NCBI GenBank assembly: GCA_038380435.1
Contig: JAWZYU010000013.1
Location: 9,809,901-9,873,900 of the forward strand
DNA from: Ryuthela nishihirai
Lineage: Eukaryota > Arthropoda > Arachnida > Araneae > Heptathelidae
Direction: 5' to 3'
DNA length: 64,000 bases
Below the pieces are notes generated by a model. That model saw only the letters and a list, made by a program, of their open reading frames with translations. It searched no databases and was not told the DNA's origin. Of the stretch, positions 1 to 22,987 are shown piece after piece; positions within the stretch are counted from its first letter, which is position 1; every line of letters begins with the position of its first letter. The translations under genes were made by a program, and so were the position numbers.

Positions 1-287
1 TGATTCCCGATCCGTCTGTAATTGTAACACTTTATCGGTTTAAAACAGGGAATCAGCCAATCCGTTAGAGGCAACGGCATTTCCACGTGCATTGTCAAGT
101 AAATCTTTTCTTTGGATTTAAACACAGGACCGTTAGTCACTATCTTGTTACTGGGCTTATAGCGCACTTCGGCAGAAACAACTTCATTTTCGGTGTATAA
201 TTTGTAGCAATCTATAAAATAGTTTAAAGATGTGTTCTCACAAATTAATAGAGTTATAAAAGGAACATCCTCTTTACCATTATTCAT
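1..287 (-). CDS. Partial viral gene, 3' part off the window edge, unknown function
   Basis: Reading the minus strand from an ATG at 285-287 gives about 95 uninterrupted codons that run off the left edge, so only the N-terminal part of the protein is present. It begins MNNGKEDVPFITLLICENTS. It has no obvious membrane segment or domain motif, and I do not recognise it. It is divergent from the helicase, with only 21 bp between the two start codons, so the two genes must share a very short promoter region. AT-rich codon use matches the neighbouring viral genes. That it is real rests on the open frame, the tight head-to-head spacing and the absence of a competing plus-strand frame. Confidence 0.6.
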   Translation of the reverse strand, partial: MNNGKEDVPFITLLICENTSLNYFIDCYKLYTENEVVSAEVRYKPSNKIVTNGPVFKSKEKIYLTMHVEMPLPLTDWLIPCFKPIKCYNYRRIGN

Positions 288-308
288 TCTAAAGAATATT
301 GAAACGAG

Positions 309-1571
309 ATGACCACTTATACAAGTGCAAAGTCGTGTATCGTTGACATGTATGAATTTATTCCTATATTCAATACAGTTGGGTTCAATAAACATTTTGA
401 GAAATTAAACGAAGACCAAAAGCAAATTGTCGCTTTAATTAACGGCTGGTTCAAAGATAAATGTAACGCTATTTGTTTATTGAGCGGAGCCCCCGGTACT
501 GGTAAAACGTATGCTGTATTGAACACTCTGGATCTCGTCAAATGTGAGTGTCTTAAATTAGCACCCACAAAGAAGGTAGCCAACAGCATCGGAGGGAAAA
601 CTTTACACAGCGCCTTTACAATTCCTTACGATAAGGGATCTGCCCTAGAGAAAATATATACAGAATCAGAAACGATTGAAAACAATGAAAAATATGTCGA
701 ATTATGCCAGGAATTGAGTAAAAGCTTACACAAAACATTTTATACAAATTCATTTAACCCCGGGGTCATAGATATCGTCTACATTGACGAAATTGGAATG
801 ATACCCTTTTGGTTTACACATCAGATCATCCACTATTTTATAACGCTGAAACCTAATACGCTATTCATCTTTAGCGGAGACAAGTTTCAATTACAGCCCA
901 TTCGCTGTAAATATAATGCATTCGATGTATATTATCCCATAAAAACTTTCTTGATAGAATTAGGAACGAATAATCGTTTCACCAGAGAATACAACGAATT
1001 AATAATCCAGATTAAAAGGTGCGTAGTGGATAAAAATAGTCCTCAACTGATACACTTGATTAAACAGAATTATAAAATGGTTAATGAGTTAAGCGATGAA
1101 ATGTTAGAAAATTGTAGCGCCATATTAGCCTATAGAAATTGTACAGTAGACAAATACAATAAAATGTATCTAAAACACTTCCCCGGTAAAAAACTAACCA
1201 TTCCCAAAATACTAAAAGACGTGGCTTACATTAATGGCGCTTTAAAAGTTAAACCCAACTGCTTATTAATCACCACTAAAACCTGCGAACTCGCCAATGG
1301 AACCAAGGTGGTTTACGAAAGCTTTGATCAACACAATGACAAGCTGGTGGTCAAAAACGAATGCGGTCTGTTTTTCAAATTGTCCAGATGCTATGGCCAG
1401 TTTCCTGTAAAATTGGGATTTGCAGTTACCATACATCGTTACCAGGGTGAAACGATCAATGGAAACATATTTATAGATTTCGATAAAAAATGCGATTTCC
1501 ATTTGATTTACACCGCTCTCAGTAGAGTAAAGTCGTGCGATCAAATATTGGGAATAATGAACTTGGAATAA
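309..1571 (+). CDS. SF1 DNA helicase, Pif1/RecD-like (viral 'helicase 2' type)
   Basis: The 420-aa protein carries the ordered motifs of a superfamily 1 helicase. These are Walker A GAPGTGKT (60-67), motif Ia with APTKKVANSI (85-94), Walker B YIDE (158-161), the Q-containing motif III GDKFQLQPI (190-198), motif V TIHRYQGETI (374-383) and motif VI YTALSRV (401-407). This is the Pif1/RecD pattern: an ATP-driven 5'-3' DNA translocase acting in replication or recombination. Nudiviruses and hytrosaviruses carry such a second helicase besides the large replicative one, and about 420 aa is a plausible compact length. Walker and arginine-finger motifs are intact, so the protein could be active. The last codons lie in a short repeat (AATAATGAACTTGG units, 1555-1599) that also duplicates the stop codon. 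Helicase identity is firm; the virus-family assignment is inference. Confidence 0.9.
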   Translation: MTTYTSAKSCIVDMYEFIPIFNTVGFNKHFEKLNEDQKQIVALINGWFKDKCNAICLLSGAPGTGKTYAVLNTLDLVKCECLKLAPTKKVANSIGGKTLHSAFTIPYDKGSALEKIYTESETIENNEKYVELCQELSKSLHKTFYTNSFNPGVIDIVYIDEIGMIPFWFTHQIIHYFITLKPNTLFIFSGDKFQLQPIRCKYNAFDVYYPIKTFLIELGTNNRFTREYNELIIQIKRCVVDKNSPQLIHLIKQNYKMVNELSDEMLENCSAILAYRNCTVDKYNKMYLKHFPGKKLTIPKILKDVAYINGALKVKPNCLLITTKTCELANGTKVVYESFDQHNDKLVVKNECGLFFKLSRCYGQFPVKLGFAVTIHRYQGETINGNIFIDFDKKCDFHLIYTALSRVKSCDQILGIMNLE

Positions 1572-1599
1572 TGAACTTGGAATAATGAACTTGGAATAA
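1555..1599 (+). repeat. Short direct repeat spanning the helicase stop codon
   Basis: A 14-15 bp unit with the core AATAATGAACTTGG occurs three times and breaks off in a partial fourth copy. The first copy encodes the helicase C-terminus and stop, and the others form the spacer to the next gene. It looks like slippage that copied the gene end downstream, a pattern also seen after the nuclease gene at 22178-22300. Confidence 0.8.
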
Positions 1600-1607
1600 T
1601 TAAGATC

Positions 1608-2129
1608 ATGGAATACTATATTGCTATGAGCGAAATAATATGTCAAACAGCGATGGCATTCACTTATTATTTATTGGTTAAACACGAATATGATGAAATT
1701 CCACATCTAAGGTTAATTCAGAAAACTAACAATATCATACTCAATGATAAGTTTAGAAATATGCACAAACTGCGTTTTGACAAAAGAATCAGGTCTATTC
1801 CCGACCTTTACACTCAACGCTATTATCCCGGCATACATAGAGTCGATTTCACATTAAATGCGATCAGTGAAAATTTAAAAGTAGAAGACATGTCTCGCAT
1901 ATTTAAATCCTTTTACAGAGACGAATATTCTAAAACAAATTATCCAATAATGGTGAAAAAAATTATTCCTTTACAACACGATTTCTCTAACTTGCACATT
2001 TCTACACTCGTACAAAATTACGATTTAATACGTCAATTAGCACCTATCAAAATAACCCTTCCCACAGACGTAAAATCAACTGTGATAAAATCAGACGAAA
2101 CCGACAACAATTCTCAAATAGGTTCTTAA
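1608..2129 (+). CDS. Unknown viral protein, paralogue of the next gene
   Basis: A 173-aa ORF. Its N-terminus, MEYYIAMSEIICQTAMAF followed by TYYLL and YEYDE-like residues, matches the N-terminus of the adjacent downstream gene (EYYIATSEIIRSMQMSF, then YYLLREYEYDEL). The two are therefore tandem duplicates. The rest has drifted: this copy ends in a Ser/Thr/Asp-rich tail. No membrane segment or catalytic motif is visible, and I do not recognise the family. A TAAG at 1601-1604 lies four bases before the ATG, as in baculovirus-type late promoters. The spacing to the next ATG is 9 bp, suggesting co-expression. Confidence 0.75.
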   Translation: MEYYIAMSEIICQTAMAFTYYLLVKHEYDEIPHLRLIQKTNNIILNDKFRNMHKLRFDKRIRSIPDLYTQRYYPGIHRVDFTLNAISENLKVEDMSRIFKSFYRDEYSKTNYPIMVKKIIPLQHDFSNLHISTLVQNYDLIRQLAPIKITLPTDVKSTVIKSDETDNNSQIGS

Positions 2130-2138
2130 AATAAGATA

Positions 2139-2678
2139 ATGGAATCAGATTTAGAATATTACATTGCCACTAGTGAGATTATCAGAAGCATGCAAATGTC
2201 ATTCATTTATTATCTATTACGAGAATATGAATATGATGAACTATACACATTTTTGATACATATTGATTTTGTGACAAAAAATAAGTTGAATCACTTGTAT
2301 GATAAGTTTTTTTACGGGCTGAAACGAACAAATGCTTTACCAATTAAGAATATTATTAAACGTAGGGAAATAAGTTCGTTCCACGTGAACCGATTAGCTG
2401 CAAATATCATTAGTAATGAATATGACTTTGAAACAGCCACTTTTAAAAGACCTTATTATAGACAAATATTTAATATGGACAATAAGGCTTTTGAAATTAT
2501 AAAAGATTATACAGACTTGGACTATTCAAACGTGCTTTATTTAGAAATAATGATCCCTAAACCCAAAGAACCAATCAAAGAAGAATTTTTTGATGCAAAA
2601 ATGGAAATTGATGATAAGAATCCTCTCAAGAGACCATCATCAGAATCGAATGATAAACTCAAAAACAAGAAAAAATAG
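2139..2678 (+). CDS. Unknown viral protein, paralogue of the preceding gene
   Basis: A 179-aa ORF related through its first 40 residues to the upstream 173-aa protein. The C-terminal 25 residues are very basic and Lys/Ser-rich (ending KLKNKKK), which could act as a nuclear-localisation or nucleic-acid-binding tail; the upstream paralogue lacks this, so the tails have diverged. TAAG at 2132-2135 precedes the ATG by three bases. Downstream is a short GCATTATTAA-type repeat (2690-2785), and then a convergent minus-strand gene. The function is not known to me. Confidence 0.75.
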   Translation: MESDLEYYIATSEIIRSMQMSFIYYLLREYEYDELYTFLIHIDFVTKNKLNHLYDKFFYGLKRTNALPIKNIIKRREISSFHVNRLAANIISNEYDFETATFKRPYYRQIFNMDNKAFEIIKDYTDLDYSNVLYLEIMIPKPKEPIKEEFFDAKMEIDDKNPLKRPSSESNDKLKNKKK

Positions 2679-2689
2679 CCATTATTGAG

Positions 2690-2785
2690 CATTAAAAATA
2701 GCCTTAGCATTATTAAATTCCTGCATTATTGAGCATTATTAAGCATTATTAAGCATTATTAAGCATTATTAAATTCCTGCATTAT
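2690..2785 (+). repeat. GCATTATTAA-type intergenic short repeat
   Basis: Units of about 10-11 bp built on GCATTATTAA or GCATTATTGA are repeated, with TTCCTGCATTATT interspersed, in the convergent gap between the 179-aa gene and the minus-strand 311-aa gene. The last units run into the stop of the minus-strand gene. No coding frame is evident. It probably arose by slippage and may act as the shared 3' region. Confidence 0.7.
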
Positions 2786-3721
2786 TTAGCATTTTGCCCA
2801 CAGTTGATTAGTAATTTTAATTAAATTTTCAGACATATTAATATTATATTTTTCAACATCGGTCTTTGGATTGAAAATACAAAATCCATTCACCACACTA
2901 ATATTACTTTGTGACCTGACTTCGTTAACATTGACTGTTTGAAAGGGTGATGCACGAATTATGTCCCATTTATTTTTCACATTTCCTAGAGAAAAGTCTA
3001 CGCAACAAATTTTATCCACGTGCCTTTGAACCAAGCTCTCAAATGCTTCTAGCATTCTGTCGGGAAAACATATGACCCAGTTTGTAACACTCAGGTTATT
3101 ATGCTTTAAAACCTCAAATATGTATAATAAATGAATGAATGCTTCGAAGCTGGTAGTCGTGTGTGACAAATCAACAACTATGTAGACTTTATTTTCGTAA
3201 AAATCTGGTAATTCTCTGTTGTATAGAGCTAGATAATCCGCATCGGGTTTAGTGGAGATTGTTTTGATCACGTGAGTTTGAGCAAAAGTTTTCCAGATAT
3301 GCGTATTTCTATGAGTGACCGAATTATCTTGGCGTTTAATTAACTCCATTGACGTTTCCACATCTTTCTGTAAATCTTGGCCGTGGTAGTAACAGACATG
3401 AGTAGTTTCGTCATCTGGAACCTGAAACAGCAAATGACTGCTAAATATAATTATTCTGGCTATATGGGAAGAACTAAATATGATGCTATCGGCTTGTGGT
3501 TCCAAATAAATTAAAAGGTCGCATTTATCAAAAGCCGTGTTAACGTGTATATTACCACTTTCGGGAAAAGAAATATATTCCGATTTTATAACTATTTCTA
3601 GCGTGGGATAATTTTCTATCAAATATCTATATAATAGTAAGGGGTTTCTTGCTAAGTTTCCAAATACTACCGATATTTTTTGTTGTAATAAAAACTTGAA
3701 AAGCTTATCGATAGAATCCAT
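2786..3721 (-). CDS. Unknown viral protein, 311 aa
   Basis: A long minus-strand ORF with ATG at 3719-3721, read away from the repeat-rich gap to its right. It is a soluble-looking alpha/beta sequence with hydrophobic strand-like stretches (around 15-35, 85-100, 175-190 and 205-225) and no transmembrane helix or signal peptide. No Walker, zinc-finger or nuclease motif is evident. Segments such as VYIVVDLSHTTTS and WVICFPDRM alternate strands and loops like a Rossmann-type fold, but that is only an impression. It converges on the 179-aa gene. Its length and codon use agree with a genuine gene; I cannot name it. Confidence 0.75.
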   Translation of the reverse strand: MDSIDKLFKFLLQQKISVVFGNLARNPLLLYRYLIENYPTLEIVIKSEYISFPESGNIHVNTAFDKCDLLIYLEPQADSIIFSSSHIARIIIFSSHLLFQVPDDETTHVCYYHGQDLQKDVETSMELIKRQDNSVTHRNTHIWKTFAQTHVIKTISTKPDADYLALYNRELPDFYENKVYIVVDLSHTTTSFEAFIHLLYIFEVLKHNNLSVTNWVICFPDRMLEAFESLVQRHVDKICCVDFSLGNVKNKWDIIRASPFQTVNVNEVRSQSNISVVNGFCIFNPKTDVEKYNINMSENLIKITNQLWAKC

Positions 3722-4313
3722 GTCCTTTATTTTTCTAAAAAACTTTTAGCAACGGCTCAGTTTGTACAGGCAAGTGGTCATAATTGTGGTTACGTCATTA
3801 TTTGGGGAAAACCCCAAAATGCCTAATGCAGCCATCCACTTGAATAACTAGTTGTTACTTATTAACTACTTATTGAATAATGAACTAACACATATAATTA
3901 ACTTTATTAAGTAATTAAATGAATCATTAACACATTTAATATTATCATGAACACTTTAGTTCCTGGGGTTTTCCTTATTATGACGTCACATCTTAATGAC
4001 TTATTAATTACAATCATTAATTAATACTTGAGTGTATCAATGCTTGAAATGATTACTTGAGTGTATCAATGCTTGAATGGCTCAGCCTCTCATGATCATA
4101 CCGTGTATGTTGGTTTTTCCGTATACATTTCCTTAATGCGGGAAAATCTCCAATAGGAAAAAAAATTTGATTCATAACTATGTTTGACTCTAACTACCAG
4201 ATATTAACACATATAGCTAGCTTTAGTGAATAAACATAAGCGAAGTAATCCCGATGAGCCGCCATTGAAACTATATACAAGAAAACTCAGCTTGAGGAAA
4301 GCTATTAAGCTAT
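3722..4313. promoter_or_regulatory. AT-rich intergenic region with an imperfect inverted repeat carrying CRE-like sites
   Basis: There is no credible ORF in 590 bp. GTTACGTCATTATTTGGGG followed by AAAACCCC (about 3787-3818) recurs inverted at about 3963-3990 as GGGGTTTTCCTTATTATGACGTCAC. Each arm thus pairs a GACGTCA/TACGTCA element with a GGGG-AAAA-CCCC-type box, and the arms enclose about 145 bp of nearly pure AT. Two direct copies of ACTTGAGTGTATCAATGCTTGAA follow at about 4027-4075. Baculovirus hr elements, which are origins and enhancers, contain palindromes with CRE-like sites, so a replication or enhancer role is possible. It also lies upstream of the 311-aa gene. The function is inference. 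Confidence 0.5.
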
Positions 4314-4337
4314 ATGTCCTGTGATACTGCCATCCTT

Positions 4338-4706
4338 TATGGTCCCAACCGTCCATTAAGCCGTGGTCCTAACCGTCCATTAAGCCGTGGTCCCAACCGC
4401 CGCCCATTAAGCCGTGGTCCCAACCGCCGCCCATTAAGCCGTGGTCCCAACCACTGTCTATTAAGCCGTGGTCCCAACCGCCGTCCATTAAGCCGTGGTC
4501 CCAACCGTCCATTAAGCCGTGGTCCCAACCACTGTCTATTAAGCCGTGGTCCCAACCATCCATTAAGCCGTGGTCCCAACCATCCATTAAGCCGTGGTCC
4601 CAACCATCCATTAAGCCGTGGTCCCAACCGTCCATTAAGCCGTGGTCCCAACCGCTGTCTATTAAGCCGTGGTCCTAACCGTCCATTAAGCCGTGGTCCC
4701 AACCGC
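4338..4706. repeat. 24/27-bp tandem array (CCATTAAGCCGTGGTCCCAACC)
   Basis: About fourteen units of CCATTAAGCCGTGGTCCCAACC with a variable 2-5 bp insert (CG, CGCCG, ACTGT). Because the unit length is a multiple of three, both strands stay open (Gly-Pro-Asn-Arg repeats on plus, Leu-Gly-Pro-Arg on minus), but no unique coding sequence extends on either side. I treat it as non-coding repeat, downstream of the first family gene. It is noticeably more GC-rich than its surroundings. At 4783-4792 a TATAAAAAG lies on the plus strand with no plus-strand gene behind it. Confidence 0.85.
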
Positions 4707-4852
4707 TTTCTATTAGATGAAATCTCCGTGTGCACCCCCCTCCATAGTGCTTGATCACCCCCTATGAGATACTCCCGTGAGCGTATAAAAAGAACCTCCT
4801 TCCGTGTACAAACACTAGTAGATCTCCCTTCAACCCATAAAGTACAACTCCA

Positions 4853-5656
4853 TTATTTTAAATATTTATTACACATGTATAGTAAATCATTATAAATATG
4901 ATCAATCAAAATTTCACAATCAATTTCACCAATTTCATAATTATCAATTTCATAAACAATTCGATAATTAAACCATTTAGCTAATATCTCCAAGTTTAAT
5001 GCATTAATTGCTTCATAGTAATATCGATCAAGATCATCCGTATTCATAAACAAACAAACATTTAAAACGCCACCGTGATGAACAATTCCACAAGCACAAA
5101 CTTTTGCAGGACATTTATCTAAAATATAATACGTAACTTGAATAATTATGCATTGTTTTAATAAATTCCATACACTATCTCCATCTTTATAATTTGGGGG
5201 AAATAATTTGCTGTGACAAAACAAAAAACTTTGTTTATAATTCTCCCAGTATCTATAATATTTGGAATATTCATATTTTATGAGTAAACATAATTTTTTA
5301 AAATTAGAAATTCCAATAATTCTAGAAAAATGATTGCAATTTTGTTTCAAAAGAATTTTATCTTTAAAAATATCACTTGTTAAAAAAGTACCTTGGTTTA
5401 GTTCATTGTTTATTATTAAAATATCCCCTTCAACACCTTTACCTATATTAATTTGAGAGCTAAATTCTTGATAACGAAGGTTATCTAAATCAAAACACAA
5501 TAGTCTATATAATTTAAACCATTCATCAGTTGTCAATTGAACATATTGGCCATCATTATTTATCAATTGAACATATTCTCCTCCCTCCAATTTTTCCCCA
5601 TCACTTGATGTATCGCAAAAGTTACAATTTATATTAAACCCTAGAGAAATGGACAT
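4853..5656 (-). CDS. Four-member viral paralogue family, member A (267 aa)
   Basis: The frame is open to 5758, but the ATG at 5654-5656 (protein begins MSISLGFNINCNFCD) is preferred. A TATATAAAG lies about 41 bp upstream of it, and it gives 267 aa, the length of its three relatives. Shared features are an N-terminal C-x2-C (residues 13-16), a DEWFKLYRLL-type segment near residue 50, a central VWNLLKQCIIIQ segment, a Cys-rich stretch (CPAKVCAC) and a C-terminal amphipathic ILIDHIYNDLLYMCN. It has no signal peptide or membrane helix. The role is unknown; a cytosolic or nuclear regulatory or structural protein of lineage-specific expansion fits. Tandem repeats lie both upstream (5720-5960) and downstream (4338-4706). 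Confidence 0.75.
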   Translation of the reverse strand: MSISLGFNINCNFCDTSSDGEKLEGGEYVQLINNDGQYVQLTTDEWFKLYRLLCFDLDNLRYQEFSSQINIGKGVEGDILIINNELNQGTFLTSDIFKDKILLKQNCNHFSRIIGISNFKKLCLLIKYEYSKYYRYWENYKQSFLFCHSKLFPPNYKDGDSVWNLLKQCIIIQVTYYILDKCPAKVCACGIVHHGGVLNVCLFMNTDDLDRYYYEAINALNLEILAKWFNYRIVYEIDNYEIGEIDCEILIDHIYNDLLYMCNKYLK

Positions 5657-5688
5657 GTTTTTAACTAAAAACTCATTAAATATCACCT

Positions 5689-5697
5689 CTTTATATA
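5689..5697 (-). promoter_or_regulatory. TATA box for family member A
   Basis: TATATAAAG on the minus strand lies 32-41 bp upstream of the ATG at 5656. It decides the start: the longer frame begun at 5758 would place the TATA box inside the coding region. Confidence 0.55.
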
Positions 5698-5719
5698 AAC
5701 ATTTACAAATTACTACAAA

Positions 5720-5960
5720 TGCATTTAACTTTATGCAAGGGACACTCAACTTTACCAATAATTCACCCTACTTTACGCAAGGGGCACTCAACTTTACCAA
5801 TAATTCACTCTACTTTACGCAAGAGACACGCAACTTTACCAATAATTCACCCTACTTTACGCAAAGGGCATTTACGCAAGAGGCACTCAACTTTACCAAT
5901 AATTCACCCTACTTTACCTCAAACTCACCCCACCTTACCTCAAGCTCAACTAACCCCACT
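5720..5960. repeat. 39-42 bp tandem array upstream of member A
   Basis: Five or so units of CTTTACCAATAATTCACCC followed by TACTTTACGCAAGGGGCACTCAA, with truncated units at the right end. The plus strand is open through it (Asn-Phe-Thr-Asn-Asn-Ser repeats) but joins no unique coding sequence, so I read it as regulatory or neutral repeat in the gap between the start of member A and the stop of member B. Confidence 0.75.
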
Positions 5961-5980
5961 TCAATAATTTCACCCCCGAT

Positions 5981-6799
5981 TTACACCTCCGTTTCACAAA
6001 CATTACTCAATTCTACATATATTTCTTGTAATAAAAGTTTATAGTTTATGGTAGCAATAAATTTCAAAAGTTGATTAATACATTCTAATTTTGCCACTTC
6101 CTCATAAAATTTCTGTGCGAGATCAGATAAATTAAAATTATAAACAGCCCTGTAATATTTAGTAATGTCGCATGGGTAGAATGAATGACAAGTGTGCATA
6201 TCTTGCGCACGTTCATTGTTAACACATCCCTCGCATCCCCTCTTCATATCAATTGTCATTCTCCCATATATTTTAAATTTAAGCAATTCCTTTAATATGA
6301 ATAAAATTTTTGAATTATTCAAGTTTACATCCATAGAATGATATTTCATAATCTTTATATAATTTTCAACATATAAAGGAAATAAGTTTTCAAATCTTTT
6401 ACAAAGTATGAAATAAGAAAGTTCATTGCACGTTTTTTTCAGAGATTTAAACTGCTCTAAATCGAAACAAATAAGCTGTCTAAATTCATTCTCTTTATTC
6501 CCGTATAACAACAACATACCAGATGCATTAATTATTACAAATTTTTGAAAACCAAAGCAACTTTCAATTGAATCGTAATTTAATAGTATTTTATTTAATT
6601 TAAAATACTCATTAACATGCATTTTAAAGTTATTTTCAGATATTTCAAACTCTACAAAACCGTTACATATTTTACACTGAATTCCACACATCATGGGAAA
6701 TATATATTCCTTTTTATCATCGAAATATAAGTCCTCATCAGAATCACTGTCACTGGTTGATATTATCTCTCCCATACTACCACTGTCGTCACTATACAT
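5981..6799 (-). CDS. Four-member viral paralogue family, member B (272 aa, most diverged)
   Basis: The protein opens with an acidic Ser/Asp-rich stretch (MYSDDSGSMGEIISTSDSDS) absent from the relatives. Then comes CGIQCKIC (a C-x3-C-x2-C group), the family segment VNEYFKLNKILL, a central LFILKELLKFK in place of the W-x3-RQC motif, a Cys-rich patch (CEGCVNNERAQDMHTC) and the closing LLLQEIYVELSNVCE. The shared order of segments and similar length support homology, although identity is low. It shares a 62-bp divergent promoter, containing an alternating TA run at about 6829-6837, with the plus-strand membrane-protein gene. The acidic head could be a protein-interaction tail; function unknown. 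Confidence 0.7.
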   Translation of the reverse strand: MYSDDSGSMGEIISTSDSDSDEDLYFDDKKEYIFPMMCGIQCKICNGFVEFEISENNFKMHVNEYFKLNKILLNYDSIESCFGFQKFVIINASGMLLLYGNKENEFRQLICFDLEQFKSLKKTCNELSYFILCKRFENLFPLYVENYIKIMKYHSMDVNLNNSKILFILKELLKFKIYGRMTIDMKRGCEGCVNNERAQDMHTCHSFYPCDITKYYRAVYNFNLSDLAQKFYEEVAKLECINQLLKFIATINYKLLLQEIYVELSNVCETEV

Positions 6800-6861
6800 G
6801 ATTCTTCACCTTTATACGGGGTGCGATATATATATATCCATACAGTAAAAAATCTTTTTAA

Positions 6862-15077: not shown

Positions 15078-15103
15078 CTCAATAAAAACAAGACAAAATC
15101 ATA

Positions 15104-15439: not shown

Positions 15440-15470
15440 ATTTCCAGCAGAAAATTTTCATAAAACTCAT

Positions 15471-15479: not shown

Positions 15480-15513
15480 AAAGAAATAAAGAAACTCTAA
15501 ATTATCAATAAAA

Positions 15514-15726: not shown

Positions 15727-16043
15727 ACCAACTCGACATTGAAATACGTATCATCTTCATTAACCAAAGTGAGTTTATCGCCGACAGAACAGCCGAAAAT
15801 GGCAAAATAATTCAGTTTTTCCCTTATGCAATCGTCACCAGAATAGGGTCTGATCGATATATCTTTGAATGTACTTAAAAATATGCGAAGATTAGCATTT
15901 AATTGTACTCTGTATATCGTATTATCTTGAAATTTAACTAATAAAATAATTTTGTTCTTATTAATAATTTGTGTAGATACCTTTTTTAATGGTTTAATTC
16001 CCTTATTTATTATACTTGTGATGGTGTCCAAAAATAAAGTCAT
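15723..16043 (-). CDS. Small unknown protein (106 aa), start overlaps the divergent gene
   Basis: The frame stays open to 16295, but that extension lies wholly inside the opposite-strand gene. The ATG at 16041-16043 is the likely start, giving a protein opening MTLFLDTITSIINKG. It is a beta-rich sequence with no membrane helix or Cys cluster. The first 23 bp overlap the start of the plus-strand 200-aa gene, so the two promoters must lie inside each other's coding sequences. Not recognised; a compact fold of the ubiquitin-like size class is possible but unproven. Confidence 0.55.
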   Translation of the reverse strand: MTLFLDTITSIINKGIKPLKKVSTQIINKNKIILLVKFQDNTIYRVQLNANLRIFLSTFKDISIRPYSGDDCIREKLNYFAIFGCSVGDKLTLVNEDDTYFNVELV

Positions 16044-16623: not shown

Positions 16624-16832
16624 TCAAACGTTATAAAGTTAAAAGTAAAAATTTAATTTTATTCTTAAATAAAAAACTATTTATATATTGGCTAGCATCC
16701 CATTACTTGTTAGAGAACAAAAAAATCAAATTTAAAATCATATCGCTTTCGAAAGTATATCACAAAAATTCCTTTTATTACGCAAATTTGGTAATATACG
16801 AATATGGTAAGGTTATATTTCGATCGCATTGA
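16620..16832 (+). CDS. Small basic protein (70 aa) between overlapping genes
   Basis: It starts inside the previous stop (ATGA) and ends 29 bp inside the following gene. It is strongly basic (Lys-rich, with a KVKSKN and KKLFIYWL pattern) and moderately hydrophobic in the middle (FIYWLASHYLL). The double overlap is typical of compact viral coding and is the main support; there is no recognisable domain. Confidence 0.5.
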   Translation: MIKRYKVKSKNLILFLNKKLFIYWLASHYLLENKKIKFKIISLSKVYHKNSFYYANLVIYEYGKVIFRSH

Positions 16833-17247
16833 CCCCACAATAAATAACTATAGGCACGTCATAGAATTTACTGACGAAAAACCACTGAAATATGTGACAA
16901 TAGAAAATGACAAGCCGTGTGCTTGCAACACCATAGATGACATTTCAGTCTCAAACAACACTATTTATGTGGCTGACGACAAACACCTACTCTCGGGGTC
17001 AATGTATTATCTTATTCAATATTGCTCGTTCTCGGAATTTGAGACGGCTCTCGCTTGGATCCTAAAATCCAATTACAGCACGCCTAAATTTCAAAATTTC
17101 AAATTGTCGAATGAATACTTTAAACTAAAATGCATACAGTGCTGCGGATGTAAACGATTTCAAATCGAAGGTATCCCTTGTTTTTTCACACCAGAACAAA
17201 TTGTGTTTCGCGAAATGATTGGACTAACTGTTAACAATATAATCTAA
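16804..17247 (+). CDS. Unknown Cys-containing viral protein (147 aa)
   Basis: The C-terminal third contains CIQCCGCKRF and a further Cys (IPCFF), a possible metal-binding knuckle; an earlier CAC lies near residue 38. No membrane segment is present. It begins 29 bp before the end of the previous gene and stops one base before the P74 ATG, with the P74 TAAG motif embedded in its last codons. Not recognised. Confidence 0.65.
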   Translation: MVRLYFDRIDPTINNYRHVIEFTDEKPLKYVTIENDKPCACNTIDDISVSNNTIYVADDKHLLSGSMYYLIQYCSFSEFETALAWILKSNYSTPKFQNFKLSNEYFKLKCIQCCGCKRFQIEGIPCFFTPEQIVFREMIGLTVNNII

Positions 17248-17248
17248 G

Positions 17249-18742
17249 ATGGAAGTTATCGATTATGACATTAAGCACGCTCTAGCTTATGCCGAATATT
17301 ACGTAACGAAATACAAATACGAAAAATGCAAGAAATATCACTACTTATTTACTTATGCACATGTGAGTGAAAGAGCAGCTACCGCAGATGATTTTTACAT
17401 TCCGCCCAAAATTGCAGACAAGTGTAAGATCATTACTTACAAATTTAACGAAATTGGCTGCAATTTGATCAGTTGCTTTCCATATTTACCCAATGAGGGA
17501 GAATGTACCAAAGATTCGCAACCTAGATACATTCACTTGGGAGAAGAATACACATTAGCATGTCAGCCAGCGTGTTTTAAATTAAACCCCCAAAGCGATA
17601 AGCCTTCTCCATTCGACGTTAGTTTTAAAAATGGCATATGTAAAATGAATAACTTTATAATTAAAAAATTTGCTATAGACCAAAATAACAAGAGACCCAT
17701 CAAACATACCGGATTAAACGTAGATGAGAACCATCGACTGAAAATAAACAAACTGTATTGTAAATCTTACGGCTTATTTTTCGACAAAGATGATTGTTAT
17801 TTAAACAAGGGACAAGAAATTGCCGAATTTTTTATCGGAACAACGACATATAGATGGACCGATAGTAAAATCACTAAAGAGGAAATTCCTCCCCCTCCTC
17901 CCACTAAATTACCAGAATGGATAAGTTATCACTGGCCCAAACCACGTATGAAAAGAGAAGTGAATGAAGCTAATCACCCCTTATCGGCAATATTCAAAGA
18001 TACTGAAAGTGTAGTTTTAAATATGGCCAGAGATATTTCCATAGATTTAGGAGTAGATCTTACATACGCCCAGTTGAAAAGGTTCATTGGTAAATCACTA
18101 CCAAAAATGTTAACAAAATCCACGGCTAATTTATTATCAAAAGTTAACTCTAAAGTTTTACTGGGTGCTATCACTCATATTATAGTGAAGAAAAACGTTA
18201 GTTTTGCCATTTCACTCGCTGTCAAATTATCTACAGCAATGACCGTAATAGGAATTATATATATACTAGCAACGATATCTTTCTCAATCGCAGATATGAT
18301 AGATCCTCTCGATTACAATACAGTTTTAAATAAAAAGGCATTAGACGCCATTAGTTTAGAATTTAACAATAAATTGTTTCATTATCTAGGGGTATACGAA
18401 TATCCCGAAATTACTCCTATGTTTGTATGGGAATATCTCGAAATGAATCTCCCAGAAGACGAAAACTATCTTAAATTATTAATTGAAAAAATGAATGAAT
18501 ATATCGATGCGTTAGATAATAATTTTTATGGCCAAGCTAAAAAATTAAAAGTTCCCCAACTCTACCACGTCGAAAAGAAAAAGAATTCACACGTTTATTT
18601 TTTAGCTGGTCATTTGTTAATTACTTCAATCATTATAATATTTGCATTCTTATTTGTAAAAAAAGTAGCCCTTTTTTCCATTTGTTTTTTATATTTTACA
18701 ATCTTGTATAACAAGTATGTATTAAACGATTCGTGGTTATAA
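17249..18742 (+). CDS. p74 (pif-0): P74 / PIF-0-type per os infectivity factor (envelope protein)
   Basis: This 497-aa protein is recognisable as the P74/PIF-0 family, an occlusion- or virion-envelope protein needed for oral infection in arthropod nuclear DNA viruses. The N-terminal part holds DDFYIPPKIADK (47-58), GCNLISCFPYL (70-80) and YTLACQPACF (101-110), the characteristic Cys-bearing blocks. A proline run (PPPPP, 214-218) is followed by a basic site (KPRMKREV, 231-238). The C-terminal half has a hydrophobic stretch (about 319-347) and a terminal membrane hairpin (about 450-486). It is shorter than baculovirus P74 proteins, which exceed 600 aa, mainly through shorter loops. The frame is intact. 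TAAG immediately precedes the ATG (17245-17248). Confidence 0.85.
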   Translation: MEVIDYDIKHALAYAEYYVTKYKYEKCKKYHYLFTYAHVSERAATADDFYIPPKIADKCKIITYKFNEIGCNLISCFPYLPNEGECTKDSQPRYIHLGEEYTLACQPACFKLNPQSDKPSPFDVSFKNGICKMNNFIIKKFAIDQNNKRPIKHTGLNVDENHRLKINKLYCKSYGLFFDKDDCYLNKGQEIAEFFIGTTTYRWTDSKITKEEIPPPPPTKLPEWISYHWPKPRMKREVNEANHPLSAIFKDTESVVLNMARDISIDLGVDLTYAQLKRFIGKSLPKMLTKSTANLLSKVNSKVLLGAITHIIVKKNVSFAISLAVKLSTAMTVIGIIYILATISFSIADMIDPLDYNTVLNKKALDAISLEFNNKLFHYLGVYEYPEITPMFVWEYLEMNLPEDENYLKLLIEKMNEYIDALDNNFYGQAKKLKVPQLYHVEKKKNSHVYFLAGHLLITSIIIIFAFLFVKKVALFSICFLYFTILYNKYVLNDSWL

Positions 18743-18769
18743 AAAAACAAGACTCCCAAACTTCTAAAC

Positions 18770-19100
18770 ACACTCGCCTACCTAAAAAATTTCTATTCCA
18801 AGCTTCCTCGCATACCAAGGTTCGCTTCCCAAGCTCGCATAAGCTTCCAAGAATAAGTATTCCAAGGTTCACTTCCCAAGCTCGCATAAGCTTCCAAGAC
18901 TAAGTATTCCAAGGTTCGCTTCCCAAGCTCGCATAAGCTTCCAAGACTAAGTATTCCAAGGTTCGCTTCCCAAACTAGCTATTCCAAGCGCTCTAAGATA
19001 CGCTTCCAAGCGCTCTAAGATACGCTTCCAAGCGCTCTAAGATACGCTTCCAAGCGCTCTAAGATACGCTTCCAAGCGCTCTAAGATACGCTTCCAAAGC
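18770..19100. repeat. Two nested tandem arrays after P74
   Basis: The left part (about 18795-18975) has three to four units of about 49 bp built around CCAAGGTTCGCTTCCCAAGC with TCGCATAAGCTTCCAAGA. The right part (about 18985-19096) has about five to six 22-bp units of CCAAGCGCTCTAAGATACGCTT. Both share the CGCTTCCAAG core, so the short array probably grew from the long one. No coding frame continues through it. Confidence 0.85.
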
Positions 19101-19117
19101 CACACTAACCAAGAATA

Positions 19118-19264
19118 ATGCTTTATTTTAACATTTTAATGTTACTCTTATTATTTTTAATGTATTGCAAAATGTATCAAAATTATATAAGTTATTTCAC
19201 TGGAGTAAATAACATAAAAACATTTAACTTGTTAAAATTAAAACGAGAATCTGTCTTTATCTAA
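19118..19264 (+). CDS. Tiny membrane ORF (48 aa)
   Basis: ATG at 19118 and TAA at 19262-19264 encode MLYFNILMLLLLFLMYCKMY followed by a 28-residue basic tail. The N-terminal hydrophobic segment (2-17) is an obvious signal-anchor. The stop is 6 bp before the ATG of the 379-aa gene and nothing else occupies the gap after the repeat array. Arthropod-virus infectivity complexes contain very small proteins with just this topology, but 48 residues are too few to assign a family by eye. It may equally be a chance ORF. Confidence 0.4.
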   Translation: MLYFNILMLLLLFLMYCKMYQNYISYFTGVNNIKTFNLLKLKRESVFI

Positions 19265-19270
19265 TAAAGA

Positions 19271-20410
19271 ATGGCTTACACAGATGTTCTAATGGGAAAA
19301 GAAATAATTAATTTCTTTAAAAGCATAATATTGGGCGGCGAAAATTCATGTTCTAGTAGTGATCCCGTTACACAATTACTGATAAACGAAACTAAACAAA
19401 TTTTAGAAAAATATTTTAATGTGAAAGATGTCATGGCTAGAGGTGGTCTGTTAAAATGCCAACAGGATGTGAATGCGGATCTGCAGAGTTTTATTAATCA
19501 CGTATCTGAGTGTAATGCTAATTTCTACAACGACAACAATAAAACATCCGAAAGGCCTCAATTTCATACCCCAATGGTTAATCGCTTTTACGACCAGTTA
19601 CAAGTCGCTTGCAAAGGTGATTTAAACAGGGGTATATCGTCTAATAAATACGTTCACGATTTAATGAATCGTGACCATTCTCCCTTTAAACTCTCTGCCC
19701 CCAAGAAGAATGATAATTATTCAATCTTGGCGAGTATAATGAATGGAGACACCGATAGTGTTTACGAGTTTACAGACGCTCATTTTTGGGGTAGCATCGC
19801 TCGAAACACCATATTGAAAACATTATCGAACGACGAACGTTTAAAGATAATTAGGAACACTCCTAATCAGTACTTGAGAGATATACAGATATTATATCAG
19901 ATAAAGTGCAACTCTTTAGGTAAAATCATCCCGCCATTCGCTTTAGACTTGGTGGTCGACGAGGAATACTTAGAAAGCATTCATTGGTCTAATCCAGACA
20001 CATTTCTCCACTTCTTAAAAGAATATCCCAATCATCAATTAACTCTCACAGTTAAACAATTATTCACAAAACTCTTCAATTCCTTCTTGAATGCGTCAGA
20101 ATGCGACTCTTCCACATTACTAGAAGAAAACACTGCAAGATATATTTCTAAATTTATCAAAAATGTTTTAAATGTAGATATTTATATCCCCCAAGTTCTA
20201 TCCAATAAGATCCCACCCAAAGTCATTGACGTATTTATACGATTATTAGCTTACGTTAACAAGGAAAATTTGTGGCAAGATATACCAGTCACTACAATCA
20301 TCGCTGAAAATAACAACACGACTGCATTATTAAAATTATTTTATAAATATTTAACCATAAAAAATGAATTACATCAATTTAAAAAGAATGGCTTAACAAC
20401 CACTCTCTAA
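19271..20410 (+). CDS. Unknown viral protein (379 aa)
   Basis: A long soluble protein, largely helical, with an N-terminal region carrying few cysteines (C23, C54, C70) and no motif I can name. There is no membrane helix or signal peptide. The size and lack of catalytic residues would fit a structural protein such as a capsid or tegument component, which is a guess. The end overlaps the convergent minus-strand gene by 32 bp, so both frames are selected together there. Confidence 0.7.
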   Translation: MAYTDVLMGKEIINFFKSIILGGENSCSSSDPVTQLLINETKQILEKYFNVKDVMARGGLLKCQQDVNADLQSFINHVSECNANFYNDNNKTSERPQFHTPMVNRFYDQLQVACKGDLNRGISSNKYVHDLMNRDHSPFKLSAPKKNDNYSILASIMNGDTDSVYEFTDAHFWGSIARNTILKTLSNDERLKIIRNTPNQYLRDIQILYQIKCNSLGKIIPPFALDLVVDEEYLESIHWSNPDTFLHFLKEYPNHQLTLTVKQLFTKLFNSFLNASECDSSTLLEENTARYISKFIKNVLNVDIYIPQVLSNKIPPKVIDVFIRLLAYVNKENLWQDIPVTTIIAENNNTTALLKLFYKYLTIKNELHQFKKNGLTTTL

Positions 20411-20906
20411 TCAGTAAGACCTTTTGAAATGCGCAACACTTGTTACCAAAATGAAAATTACAGTCTCTGATAATATTAGGATAAATATTTTGCAAGGTTT
20501 TTAAGTTGGGACAACCCACGTCTTCCAAGTTGAGATAAGGAATACCAGCTCTCTTCAAAATGTTAGATTGGAAACTATTACCCTTAATTCCAAACACACG
20601 AGCGGGAAATTTAATTTTTAATTTGGCATATCTCGTTTTCAAAAACCAAATGACTTGTTCGAATTCGTACATCTTATTACCCCGATATTGAAGATGGGTA
20701 CACATTTGTGTGTCTATCGACTTCTTTACTACACAGGGATTAAATAATCGAAGAGCCGTACTATAATTTAAATAACTCCTTAAGCAAAATTTAACAGATT
20801 TTCCTTCAATGTCATAGTATCCAACTTCTAAGATGTAATATCTAGTCTTTTCATCTCTATATAGTACGACTCCTTGCGTGTGAACGATAGCAGAAACAAG
20901 CGTCAT
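20379..20906 (-). CDS. Unknown 175-aa protein with GCP/Cys-His motif
   Basis: The C-terminal half has a distinctive block: FGIKGNSFQSNILK, then IPYLNLEDVGCPNLKTL, then DCNFHFGNKCCAFQK and a final WLL. Spaced Lys-Gly, Gly-Cys-Pro and Cys-His-Cys-Cys elements of this kind recall a family of RNase H-fold-like proteins found in arthropod viruses and selfish elements, but I cannot confirm that without a profile search. The N-terminal half is beta-rich (VVLYRDEKTRYYILEVGYYD). It is divergent from the XRN-like nuclease, with 47 bp between the starts, and convergent with the 379-aa gene. Confidence 0.65.
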   Translation of the reverse strand: MTLVSAIVHTQGVVLYRDEKTRYYILEVGYYDIEGKSVKFCLRSYLNYSTALRLFNPCVVKKSIDTQMCTHLQYRGNKMYEFEQVIWFLKTRYAKLKIKFPARVFGIKGNSFQSNILKRAGIPYLNLEDVGCPNLKTLQNIYPNIIRDCNFHFGNKCCAFQKVLLIREWLLSHSF

Positions 20907-20953
20907 TTAAATAAAAAAATCTTTTTCCTTTTCGTATTATATAGGAAGAAAAA

Positions 20954-22177
20954 ATGGGCATTACCAATTTCACTCTATTATTAAAAGCTTTAAACTGTAA
21001 ACCCGAACCTTATATTACAAATGAATTCGACAGTATATTAATAGACATTCAGAGCATTTTATATTCTGAAATATCAAAAATCGATTCTCAGATTTCAGAC
21101 ACACTGGATTTTGTAAAATGCAGCGTGACCAAATGCATAGGTAAAATACTCCAATCAATCTTGGATCACGACAAGCATACCTTAAATCATTTAAAAGTAA
21201 TTATATCCTTCGACGGAAGTTGTGTACCCATGAAATTACCCACTCAAAAGGAGAGAAGACTAAAAAACACACCCGTACAGACCGAAAAAGAAATATTATT
21301 AGCTTCGTTATTCGAGAATAACGTGGTTTCCCAAACTGTAGCGAACCATCTGATAGACGTATTGGACACAAATAGTCAATGGTTTAAAAATAATTATTTA
21401 TCACTAGTACGAACATTTCCCAATAAAATTACTTATTACATCAGCGGAAGTGATAACGAGGGAGAAGGGGAACAAAAGTTATTCGATTACGCCGTAAAAT
21501 ATCAATGTAATAAATTACTGATAATTAGTGTAGATAATGACGTGTTTATAATTTCTTGCGTTCGAGCAAAACATTTCGAAAGCATAGAAATTAGTAAGAC
21601 GGGTAAAGATTTTTATGCCCTGAATGATTTATCACATTTTATCCAACAAAAATTAGTCTACGCGTCATTTTTATTTGGAAACGACTTTATTCCTACCATC
21701 ATTAATTTAACGGAAAGTAACGTGAAAACCATTTCAAATTATTTAAAGAAAACGGAAAAAAATAACATGGTTGAAATTATCTATAATTTAATTAAAGTGT
21801 TACAGGAAACTAAGAAAATTAGATACAAAATTAATCAAGCAAAAAACTCATTCATTCTAGTTTCCTTTTGGAAAAATTGCCTGTGGATCTCGGATTATTA
21901 TTCACGTTCTAATTTTCCGCAAAAGTTTATACACAACCATTTTTATTCGGCTTACGAGCGTAACGCATTTCTCGCTTCTAGTTTAAAGTGTTTAGAGGAC
22001 GCCTTTCAAATAGCCAATAAAGAATATTACGCAATTAAGAATCAAACTATCAATACTCAGCCTGCAAAAATTCAAGTGTTTAACCCCACGATCTTAAAAA
22101 TCATAGAGCCTTATCTTTTAAACGAAGTAAAAAAACAATACATAACCAGAATCCACTGGGACATTAAAAAAGTTTAG
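20954..22177 (+). CDS. XRN-like 5'-3' exonuclease (FEN/XRN superfamily)
   Basis: The 407-aa protein has the acidic-residue series of the PIN-like XRN/FEN nucleases: MGITNF start, LIDIQSILY (D31), ISFDGS (D87) followed by the basic KLPTQKERR, SGSDNEGEGEQK (E170 and E172 region), SVDNDVF (D194/D196) and FGNDFIP (D244). The order and the GSD-GEGE and GNDF-P wording are specifically XRN-like rather than FEN1-like. It would degrade or trim 5' ends of RNA or DNA. It is about the size of the catalytic core only; the long C-terminal domains of cellular XRN1/2 are absent. All visible metal ligands are present. Nudiviruses carry FEN-type nucleases; a viral XRN core suggests either that gene or a separate acquisition. 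Confidence 0.8.
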   Translation: MGITNFTLLLKALNCKPEPYITNEFDSILIDIQSILYSEISKIDSQISDTLDFVKCSVTKCIGKILQSILDHDKHTLNHLKVIISFDGSCVPMKLPTQKERRLKNTPVQTEKEILLASLFENNVVSQTVANHLIDVLDTNSQWFKNNYLSLVRTFPNKITYYISGSDNEGEGEQKLFDYAVKYQCNKLLIISVDNDVFIISCVRAKHFESIEISKTGKDFYALNDLSHFIQQKLVYASFLFGNDFIPTIINLTESNVKTISNYLKKTEKNNMVEIIYNLIKVLQETKKIRYKINQAKNSFILVSFWKNCLWISDYYSRSNFPQKFIHNHFYSAYERNAFLASSLKCLEDAFQIANKEYYAIKNQTINTQPAKIQVFNPTILKIIEPYLLNEVKKQYITRIHWDIKKV

Positions 22178-22340
22178 AATATCCACTAGAACAAAAGCTT
22201 TCAGTGGAATTGGCTTTAGAATTTACTTGCTTGCCTTGAGGACATTCTAAATTTCACTGGGACATTAAAAAAGTTTAGAATATCCACTGGGACATTCACT
22301 GGAACTAGCTTTAAACCTAAAATTAGTTTTAGAATTCACT
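22178..22340. repeat. Duplicated tail of the nuclease gene
   Basis: The last codons and stop of the nuclease gene (CACTGGGACATTAAAAAAGT then TTAGAATATCCACT) are copied at about 22254-22288, and shorter pieces (CACTGGGACATT, TTCACTGGAA, AGCTTT) recur to 22340. This is the same gene-end duplication seen after the helicase. Confidence 0.75.
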
Positions 22341-22346
22341 GGAAGC

Positions 22347-22568
22347 TTAAACTTTTTTATCTATCGCGTTGACTATTAACACGGACTTGGCCCCCCTTCT
22401 CATTAATTCTAAGACGGGCACTCTGGGAATGAATCCCCTAAAGTGCGGAAGTTTCGCGTAATCATTTAAGATGACCAACCACCGTAATATAAAGTCCTTG
22501 TGATTTTTAAATTCGAATAAAATCCTAACAAAAAAATTAATCACTTCGAGTTGAATTTCACGTTCCAT
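22347..22568 (-). CDS. Small unknown protein (73 aa)
   Basis: ATG at 22566-22568 overlaps the 3' end of the upstream minus-strand gene by 28 bp. It is a mixed helical, basic sequence (RRGAKSVLIVNAIDKKV at the end) with no membrane span. It could be a genuine small viral gene because it fills the gap and overlaps tightly, but it has no family signature. Confidence 0.5.
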   Translation of the reverse strand: MEREIQLEVINFFVRILFEFKNHKDFILRWLVILNDYAKLPHFRGFIPRVPVLELMRRGAKSVLIVNAIDKKV

Positions 22569-22975
22569 ATCGCAAAATAACAGGATACCAGTATTAGTAG
22601 AAACAACACAATGCTATTTATTTTTATCTGGGGAAATGGATGTATACCGAATATATAATTAAAAGATTTCTCGTGATCGAATATTTTGTACAGTTTTTCA
22701 AATTTTTTTAATGGTTCTGGAACGTTTATAAAATCATAATTTGAATTAAAACTTATAATTGTATCTTCCCAGTCTACTGTATTCAATTCCTGGAAATCAT
22801 AAGTTTTAGCATAGGGATATTTCTCATAAATTTCGTTCAGTTGTTTTAAACGCAAAGTTATTAATTGAACGGTAAATATTAAACAATCGGGATATTCCAA
22901 TATAATGTACTGATTTACGAATTTTATTTTATATTTAATCCAAGGATCACGGACTAATATTTTTTCGTACGTCAT
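22541..22975 (-). CDS. Tail-anchored membrane protein of unknown function (144 aa)
   Basis: The frame is open for eight more codons to 22999, but those lie in GC-richer sequence with a hairpin; ATG 22973-22975 (MTYEKILVRDPW) is the likely start. The body is soluble and helical, and the C-terminus has one hydrophobic span (NSIVLFLLILVSCYFAIW, about 121-138) with a short basic tail. This tail-anchored form is frequent among envelope-associated proteins of arthropod DNA viruses. It is the rightmost viral-looking gene. Not recognised. Confidence 0.65.
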   Translation of the reverse strand: MTYEKILVRDPWIKYKIKFVNQYIILEYPDCLIFTVQLITLRLKQLNEIYEKYPYAKTYDFQELNTVDWEDTIISFNSNYDFINVPEPLKKFEKLYKIFDHEKSFNYIFGIHPFPQIKINSIVLFLLILVSCYFAIWNVKFNSK

Positions 22976-22987
22976 GTCTTTACTTGG

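What the first reader, a model, noticed from the sequence alone, without database searches (positions are those of the whole stretch)
1..22980. Apparently intact block of an arthropod-type large DNA virus joined to host DNA
P74/PIF-0, a second SF1 helicase and an XRN-like nuclease sit with about 20 other dense, intron-less, unbroken AT-rich genes. About 23 kb of visibly intact viral coding sequence next to SINE- and LINE-rich DNA would mean a recent or maintained integration, or a chimeric assembly. Most of the genes are not recognisable, so it may be a new lineage.
Basis: partly seen in the sequence, partly recalled or inferred. Interest (0 to 1): 0.88.

Follow-up and report, generated by a model that had tools for sequence, protein, structure and literature searches.

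The report
Virus genome turned giant jumping element
At least twelve closely similar 170-186 kb copies of an arthropod-virus-like DNA genome sit at different places in one animal's genome assembly (likely an arachnid's), each bounded by the ends of a Tc1/mariner-type "jumping gene" and carrying an unbroken Tc1-type transposase gene, with which it would likely move - a large virus fused with a transposon, as in the Teratorn element of fish.

Summary
The viral genes are real: P74/PIF-0, an SF1 helicase and an XRN-like nuclease. The block does not end at 22,980. It is the right part of a 177,183-bp element that ends at window 39,481; the supposed host DNA from 22,980 to 39,481 is its 17.1-kb terminal inverted repeat. 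The host assembly (3.1 Gb) holds at least 12 complete copies of 170-186 kb on 10 contigs. All 12 have the same terminus (CAGTCCCTCAAAAAACTATCCG...) and TA on both sides, with different flanks. For the window's copy the reconstituted empty site matches 40 of 40 scored places of a LINE-like repeat. All 12 carry a stop-free Tc1/Sleeping Beauty-like transposase gene, P74 and PIF-2. The part read also encodes DNA polymerase B, two RNA polymerase subunits and PIF-1. Best reading: a naldavirus (class Naldaviricetes) fused with a Tc1/mariner-type transposon, convergent with Teratorn (herpesvirus plus piggyBac). In three copies checked, the two arms are virtually identical while copies differ from each other, and P74 shows purifying selection, so activity looks recent. 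Mitochondrial gene order suggests an arachnid. Not shown: transposition, expression, virions, or which transposase cuts these ends.

The parts
1..39481 (.). Right 39.5 kb of a 177,183-bp virus-derived element (C13:9672199-9849381); the other 137.7 kb lie left of the window
   Evidence: Outer termini C13:9672197 (+) and 9849383 (-), flanking TA included; both ends read
309..1571 (+). SF1 helicase (PIF1/Dda-like), 420 aa
   Evidence: Pfam AAA_19 1e-8, PIF1 2.3e-7; PHROG Dda-like helicase 1.1e-33
2786..3721 (-). unbroken ORF, 311 aa, unknown
4853..10674 (-). Four ORFs of 267-272 aa (4853-5656, 5981-6799, 8148-8951, 9862-10674), likely a diverged paralogous family (19-25% identity to the first), function unknown
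   Evidence: AlphaFold model of the first: mean pLDDT 65, no fold match at E<=0.001
10941..12455 (-). ORF of 504 aa with Thr/Pro-rich repeats between an N-terminal and a C-terminal hydrophobic stretch (mucin-like by eye)
12448..14660 (-). two unbroken ORFs, 443 and 292 aa, unknown
16021..17247 (+). two unbroken ORFs, 200 and 147 aa (16021-16623, 16804-17247), unknown
17249..18742 (+). P74/PIF-0, 497 aa
   Evidence: Pfam PF04583 4.4e-12 and PF08404 6.4e-12; among 71 matches in the host assembly 20 are full-length and stop-free at 78-100% and 4 more at 48%
19271..20410 (+). unbroken ORF, 379 aa, unknown
20954..22177 (+). XRN-like 5'-3' exonuclease, 407 aa
   Evidence: Pfam XRN_N 5.5e-9
22353..39481 (.). 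Right arm of the terminal inverted repeat (17.1 kb)
   Evidence: Left arm L014/L015; 1 mismatch in 7,702 compared bases
23482..26009 (.). Tandem array inside the inverted repeat (TRF periods 75, 160, 240 bp)
28077..39481 (.). End module: a transposon-like unit with the terminus at both of its ends and palindromic 128-bp arrays; a solo relative without virus sits at C5:38354749-38362641
33140..34300 (-). Leucine-rich-repeat-like ORF carried by the end module (about 385 aa)
   Evidence: LRR_4 0.003, below cut-off; 384-aa homologue in the solo module
39442..39481 (-). Outer terminus, reading inward CAGTCCCTCAAAAAACTATCCGAACGCTTTGTGTCAGAGG
39482..39483 (.). TA, right half of the 2-bp target-site duplication
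   Evidence: left half at L014:787-788
39484..39591 (.). Host repeat (LINE-like by eye) into which the element inserted
   Evidence: joined flanks align across the site in 40 of 40 scored places at 88-91%

Best explanation
The block is one end of a 177-kb element in which a naldavirus-type genome is bounded by Tc1/mariner-type transposon ends, and it likely moves between chromosomal sites by its own Tc1-type transposase. Shown by sequence: identical outer termini flanked by TA in 12 of 12 complete copies examined; 17-kb inverted terminal arms in the window's copy; end modules that also carry an inner copy of the terminus; a stop-free transposase gene inside each of the 12 copies (DD34E triad read in the window's copy, where it lies about 67 kb from the nearer end); and virus genes (DNA polymerase B, two RNA polymerase subunits, PIF-0, PIF-1, PIF-2). 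Inferred: the transposase binds the outer termini, excises or joins the whole element and inserts it at TA. Also inferred: between insertions the genome is copied, which would keep the two arms of a copy identical while copies diverge, and virion spread would explain why P74 is under purifying selection. The likely origin is the one proposed for Teratorn: a transposon inserted into the virus, its copies came to lie at both ends of a replicating genome, and the pair then mobilised everything between them.
For: Virus: Pfam P74, PIF-1 1.7e-17, PIF-2 in 49 places, with 0 of 14 control genomes ringing (the controls named are microbes), DNA_pol_B 7.7e-33 and RNA_pol_Rpb2_6 4.4e-17, RNA_pol_Rpb1_2 4.4e-10. 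Multi-copy with inverted arms: the 40 places scored (of 93 candidates) form 20 pairs, 19 of them on one contig. Termini: 12 copies with both outer ends, 170-186 kb (list cut short); TA on both sides in all 12 with different flanks. Empty site: 40 of 40 scored. Transposase: DDE_3 2.3e-16 and HTH_Tnp_Tc3_2 1.7e-15, Sleeping Beauty catalytic domain 1.3e-40, DD34E. In one search (121 of 95,331 candidates scored) 26 full-length stop-free copies are 95-100% identical, a second virus family has 69-74%, and apart from fragments of the same lineage the rest are at most 36%. Inside all 12 complete copies by coordinates: transposase, P74, PIF-2. Selection: transposase, window's copy vs C15 and C21 lineages, 50/8 and 44/12 synonymous/non-synonymous codons; P74 in 12 copies 21/12, P about 1e-5 against neutral at kappa 4. 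Arms within a copy: 1 mismatch in 21,473 compared bases over three copies, against 9 and 37 substitutions in about 4.8 kb between copies. Architecture: Teratorn also has long inverted repeats and internal terminal repeats (PMC5601938, passages).
Against: No transposition, excision, expression or particle was observed. The cognate ends of this transposase are unknown. The host holds 141,404 matches (3 mismatches or fewer) to the 24-base terminus and very many Tc1-type genes (51,893 first-look DDE_3 candidates), so host transposases could move it in trans. The transposase gene lies far from the termini and has none of its own nearby. One decayed 86-91% transposase stretch (C12:78165309-78166099) lies away from the P74 and PIF-2 places listed. 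Several other copies are broken or partial. Gene conversion after integration could also keep arms identical. P74 between deeper lineages is only moderately constrained (dN/dS 0.27-0.67 among four lineages). About 62% of the window's copy was read.
Confidence: 0.78

Rival explanations
1. The virus is passive cargo: abundant host Tc1/mariner transposases recognise the captured ends and move the element in trans; the virus-coded transposase has another or no role.
For: 141,404 near-matches to the terminus in the genome; an end module without a transposase that moved on its own (C5 solo copy; none seen among its ORFs of 90 aa or more); two relatives with the same ends and no transposase ORF.
Against: The virus transposase is stop-free in all 12 complete copies, conserved between lineages, and shared with a second virus family at about 72%. 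Host relatives in the scored set are 36% identical at most.
Confidence: 0.2
2. It is now purely an intragenomic transposon; the viral genes are leftovers and no particles are made.
For: Teratorn particles have not been detected despite intact genes (PMC5601938 and PMC10175614, passages). The transposase looks more constrained than P74 between lineages.
Against: P74, not needed for transposition, is under purifying selection among recent copies (21 vs 12 variable codons), and arms are identical within copies but not between them.
Confidence: 0.3
3. An ordinary endogenous virus, integrated once by illegitimate joining and spread by segmental duplication.
For: [quoted passage not shown]
Against: Different flanks with precise TA-to-TA ends in 12 of 12 copies and a precise empty site for the window's copy.
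Confidence: 0.02
4. An endogenous nimavirus like those of crustaceans.
For: Endogenous nimaviruses are multi-copy giant elements with their own integrases, one group with a DDE transposase (PMC10871703, parts 1-3 of 9).
Against: RNA polymerase subunit homologues are present, which nimavirids lack (PMC10271883, passages); the copies sit at TA in varied flanks rather than in telomere, 28S or (AT)n targets; the host looks chelicerate.
Confidence: 0.03

Closest known systems
Teratorn (medaka and other teleosts; PMC5601938, PMC10175614)
   Same: About 180 kb; large DNA virus between transposon ends; long inverted repeats; internal copies of the terminus; transposase gene; tens of copies
   Different: Alloherpesvirus plus piggyBac (TTAA target) in fish; here naldavirus plus Tc1/mariner (TA target) in a likely arachnid, the transposase gene deep inside the virus part. 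Teratorn's internal termini lie at the repeat/unique boundary, here 5.7 kb outside it
Endogenous nimaviruses of crustaceans (PMC10871703)
   Same: Naldaviricetes-type giant transposable elements with virus-coded integrases; the sesarmid ones use a Ginger2-like DDE enzyme and inverted termini
   Different: No RNA polymerase genes in nimavirids; 46-bp termini and (AT)n target, or tyrosine recombinases and telomere/28S targets; crustacean hosts
Tc1/mariner (Sleeping Beauty-type) transposons
   Same: DD34E transposase, TA duplication, CAGT... ends
   Different: Typical elements are 1-2.4 kb with the transposase between close ends (recalled); this one is about 100 times larger
Nudiviruses and other Lefavirales
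   Same: PIF-0, PIF-1, PIF-2, family B DNA polymerase and RNA polymerase subunits
   Different: No close relative found here; the RNA polymerase genes hit the general Rpb1/Rpb2 domains and no LEF family; integrated form with 17-kb inverted repeats

Membership tests
Naldaviricetes | pif genes (pif0, pif1, pif2 conserved in all families, PMC10271883) | tested here: met
   pif0; pif1; pif2
Naldaviricetes | pif3 and pif5 | tested here: inconclusive
   Candidates by eye only: L034:1460-2131 (223 aa) and L034:4947-5693 (248 aa); no Pfam or PDB support
Naldaviricetes | enveloped rod-shaped virions, nuclear replication, circular genome | not testable with these tools
   sequence only
Lefavirales | lef-8 and lef-9 (RNA polymerase subunits) | tested here: inconclusive
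   Rpb2-like 908 aa (PF00562 4.4e-17) and Rpb1-like 558 aa (PF00623 4.4e-10) are present, but no LEF family was among the Pfam hits at E<=0.1
Lefavirales | lef-4, lef-5 | not tested
   38% of the copy was not read and no family search was made
Nimaviridae | no viral RNA polymerase genes (PMC10271883) | tested here: not met
   two RNA polymerase subunit homologues
Nimaviridae | nimaviral core genes | not tested
   no reference sequences at hand
Tc1/mariner superfamily | TA target-site duplication | tested here: met
   12 of 12 copies
Tc1/mariner superfamily | DD34E/D transposase with Tc3/SB-type helix-turn-helix | tested here: met
Tc1/mariner superfamily | transposase acts on the element's own termini | not testable with these tools
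   needs a bench assay
Teratorn-like element | herpesvirus genome with piggyBac transposase and TTAA duplication | tested here: not met
   naldavirus genes, Tc1-type transposase, TA
Teratorn-like element | long inverted repeats and internal terminal repeats at their inner boundary, round a complete virus | tested here: inconclusive
   Long inverted repeats and internal termini are present, but the internal terminus lies 5.7 kb outside the repeat's inner edge; completeness of the virus not shown

The most novel reading that the evidence does not exclude
A temperate, phage-Mu-like animal virus: a chelicerate naldavirus lineage that uses a virus-coded Tc1 transposase as its integrase, lives as a giant transposon in the germ line, and still makes infectious particles that carry new copies between hosts.
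Probability: 0.3. Interest if true: 0.96.

Novelty: new variant of a known kind. Interest (0 to 1): 0.88.

Why it matters
It would show that fusion of a large nuclear DNA virus with a cut-and-paste transposon arose separately at least twice in very similar form: herpesvirus with piggyBac in fish, naldavirus with Tc1/mariner in a likely arachnid. That makes "virus becomes giant transposon" a repeatable evolutionary route. It also points to a naldavirus lineage in chelicerates and offers many young copies in one genome to test whether the virus part is still under selection and active.

Tried and rejected
Led nowhere: IMG/VR scans with P74 and with the Rpb1-like protein and phage records gave no relative. 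PDB searches with P74 (single sequence and profile), PIF-1 and the PIF-3/PIF-5 candidates gave nothing useful. A P74 tree was not possible because only one homologue was found. The structure model of the four-paralogue family had mean pLDDT 65 and no match at E<=0.001. Host species was not identified; COX1 and gene order give only a chelicerate-like arrangement, judged against recalled orders.

Rejected: chimera (multi-copy ends), single 23-kb block, crustacean nimavirus, segmental duplication.

Paper searches for this combination; among the papers they listed (2-15 each, in most cases of more that matched) none described a Tc1/mariner-naldavirus element. Papers: PMC10871703 parts 1-3 of 9 and passages; PMC10271883, PMC10175614, PMC5601938, PMC10675110 passages only; all others search listings only.
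Full report
What was checked. ORF listing of 1-25,000 shows a dense set of unbroken AT-rich genes. Of 20 ORFs scanned against Pfam, three pass a curated cut-off: P74 at 17249-18742, an SF1 helicase at 309-1571 and an XRN-like nuclease at 20954-22177.

It is not a single insertion. A translated search of the host assembly (3.11 Gb, 1680 contigs; window = C13:9809901-9873900) with the window's P74 gave 71 matches. Twenty are full-length, stop-free and 78-100% identical, and four more are 48% identical; the others are partial, carry stops or are more distant. Broken copies thus exist beside unbroken ones.

It has long inverted ends. DNA from window 22380-23230 was found in 40 scored places (93 candidates) that form 20 inverted pairs, 19 of them on one contig; window 26090-27790 gives the same picture, with more fragments. 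In the window's copy the left and right arms match from window 22,353 to the outer end.

Exact ends. The outer terminus is CAGTCCCTCAAAAAACTATCCGAACGCTTTGTGTCAGAGG. In the window's copy it lies at 39,442-39,481 (minus strand), followed by TA, and at C13:9672199, preceded by TA. The element is therefore 177,183 bp. One search lists 12 copies with both outer termini, 170-186 kb long, on 10 contigs (two each on C3 and C13); the list was cut, so more may exist, and one search also shows both termini with TA at C31. All 12 have TA on both sides and different flanks: C13a, C27 and C17, nine others (first 28 bases of the terminus identical in all nine).

Empty site. The window's copy lies in a host repeat that is LINE-like by eye. 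Its two flanks joined at a single TA align as one piece across the site in 40 of 40 scored places (1439 candidates) at 88-91%; the best four show no net length difference. This shows a precise insertion with a 2-bp duplication and argues strongly against a chimera.

End modules. The outer 11.4 kb (28,077-39,481) carry the terminus again at the inner side and palindromic arrays of a 128-bp unit. A 7.9-kb relative stands alone at C5 between TA and TA, with 2.6-kb inverted arms and an LRR-like ORF; no transposase was seen among its ORFs of 90 aa or more. The module can therefore move alone, and the giant element is composite. The inner junction differs between copies: in C27 it joins just after the position of window 27,856 with TA, in the C13 and C17 copies about 220 bp further out without TA. 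This is unexplained. The terminus belongs to a very large group: 70,850 + 70,554 matches with up to 3 mismatches, against 0 and 1 for the reversed control.

Transposase. Each of the 12 complete copies contains a DDE_3 gene in a 376-codon stop-free frame, in the window's copy at C13:9739451-9740449. It has DDE_3 and HTH_Tnp_Tc3_2 domains, is closest in the PDB to Sleeping Beauty (1.3e-40) and has D149, D235 and E270 with 34 residues between the last two. In one search (123 matches; 121 of 95,331 candidates scored) 26 full-length stop-free copies are 95-100% identical; a second virus family (C24, C68, C99, C162) has 69-74%, in two cases in split pieces. There are further partial or stop-bearing copies, one of them (C12:78165309-78166099, 86-91%) away from the P74 and PIF-2 places listed; everything else scored is 36% or less. 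No terminus-like sequence flanks the gene. It is thus most likely an old gene of the virus lineage rather than a fresh host insertion.

Virus genes in the part read outside the window. DNA polymerase B (947 aa), a protein kinase and an Rpb2-like RNA polymerase subunit; an Rpb1-like subunit and PIF-1; PIF-2, inside all 12 complete copies. PIF-3 and PIF-5 candidates and a Nudix-like protein are by eye or below cut-off. P74 has one homologue at 29% among 5.8 billion proteins (the search needs shared 5-residue words). The DNA polymerase has 12 homologues at 34-40%, one annotated in the spider Trichonephila clavipes.

Age and selection. Eight copies differ by 0.13-0.68% over about 4.4 kb round P74. 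Repeat arms within a copy, segment by best match, differ by 1 in 7,702 (C13a), 0 in 7,068 (C27) and 0 in 6,703 (C17) compared bases, while the same repeats differ between copies (9 substitutions to C27, 37 to C17 in about 4.8 kb, plus gaps). In C17 two of the segments share the same left partner because the module is palindromic. This is what copying of one arm from the other before or during integration would give; gene conversion afterwards is an alternative. With a recalled rate of about 3e-9 per site and year the arm difference would mean roughly ten thousand years; the rate was not measured. P74 in 12 stop-free copies (8 best-hit loci, 4 added) has 21 synonymous and 12 non-synonymous variable codons, P about 1e-5 at kappa 4 and 2e-4 at kappa 20; pairwise differences there reach 1.3%. 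Between deeper lineages P74 has dN/dS 0.35-0.45 against the window's copy and 0.27-0.67 among the others; comparisons with the 48% family are at or near saturation in dS. The transposase of what are probably the same C15 and C21 copies shows 50/8 and 44/12 synonymous/non-synonymous codon changes from the window's copy, so it looks the more constrained gene.

Host. Mitochondrial copies show trnI-trnQ-trnM-nad2-trnW-trnC-cox1-cox2-trnK-trnD with tRNAs of 56-68 nt and a repeat unit of about 14.2 kb. From recalled gene orders this fits an arachnid and not a crustacean or insect; the species is unknown and other arthropods with this order are not excluded.

Comparison. Teratorn has a very similar architecture: about 180 kb, long inverted repeats, internal terminal repeats, transposase and virus genes (PMC5601938 and PMC10175614, passages); its internal repeats lie at the inner edge of the long repeats, here 5.7 kb outside that edge. 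Endogenous nimaviruses are described as giant transposable elements with various integrases (PMC10871703). Nimavirids lack the RNA polymerase genes found here (PMC10271883). A survey of ixodid ticks already lists some elements it assigns to Lefavirales (Baculoviridae), grouped among the rare ones (PMC10675110, passages). Eight paper searches listed no Tc1/mariner-naldavirus element; most subscription journals and all bioRxiv preprints are outside that library.

Shown versus inferred. Shown: ends, TA flanks, one empty site, copies, stop-free genes, selection counts. Inferred: that this transposase moves the element, that particles are or were made, that the host is an arachnid, and that the fusion arose as proposed for Teratorn.

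Noticed in passing
G000:C24:17290387, C68:1942185, C99:751908, C162:477155: A second virus family: P74 48% identical to the window's, the four matches scoring alike, with PIF-2 and a 69-74% transposase on the same contigs. Its ends were not found.
   Followed up: partly
G000:C573:62501-65300 (L030): A third, distant P74 (at least 584 aa, 24% aligned identity) on a 101-kb contig; possibly a separate naldavirus, free or integrated.
   Followed up: no
whole genome, pattern: 141,404 matches to the 24-base terminus at 3 mismatches or fewer: a huge Tc1/mariner-like group; two members read (L036, L037) have long inverted repeats and no transposase ORF.
   Followed up: partly
window 28123-31190 and 36594-39435: Palindromic 128-bp tandem arrays inside the end module; module length differs between arms and copies.
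   Followed up: partly
window 27857-28076 against L016:8274: The inner junction of the end module differs by about 220 bp between copies, with TA in one and no TA in two others.
   Followed up: partly
C13:74316502-74316601 (L042) and C74:1117440-1117539 (L048): The left flanks of two copies end in a related but different Tc1-like terminus: apparently inserted beside another transposon.
   Followed up: no
G000:C12:78165309-78166099: A decayed 86-91% piece of the virus transposase away from the listed P74 and PIF-2 places; origin not looked into.
   Followed up: no
C1316, C1414, C1436 and other small contigs; C27, C28, C1 and others: About 14.2-kb mitochondrial genome repeated head to tail on small contigs, plus many COX1-like copies on large contigs.
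   Followed up: no
P0014 (annotated Trichonephila clavipes, 89-kb contig): A protein annotated as a spider DNA polymerase is 38% identical to the element's polymerase over 56% of the query; related viruses may lie in spider assemblies.
   Followed up: no
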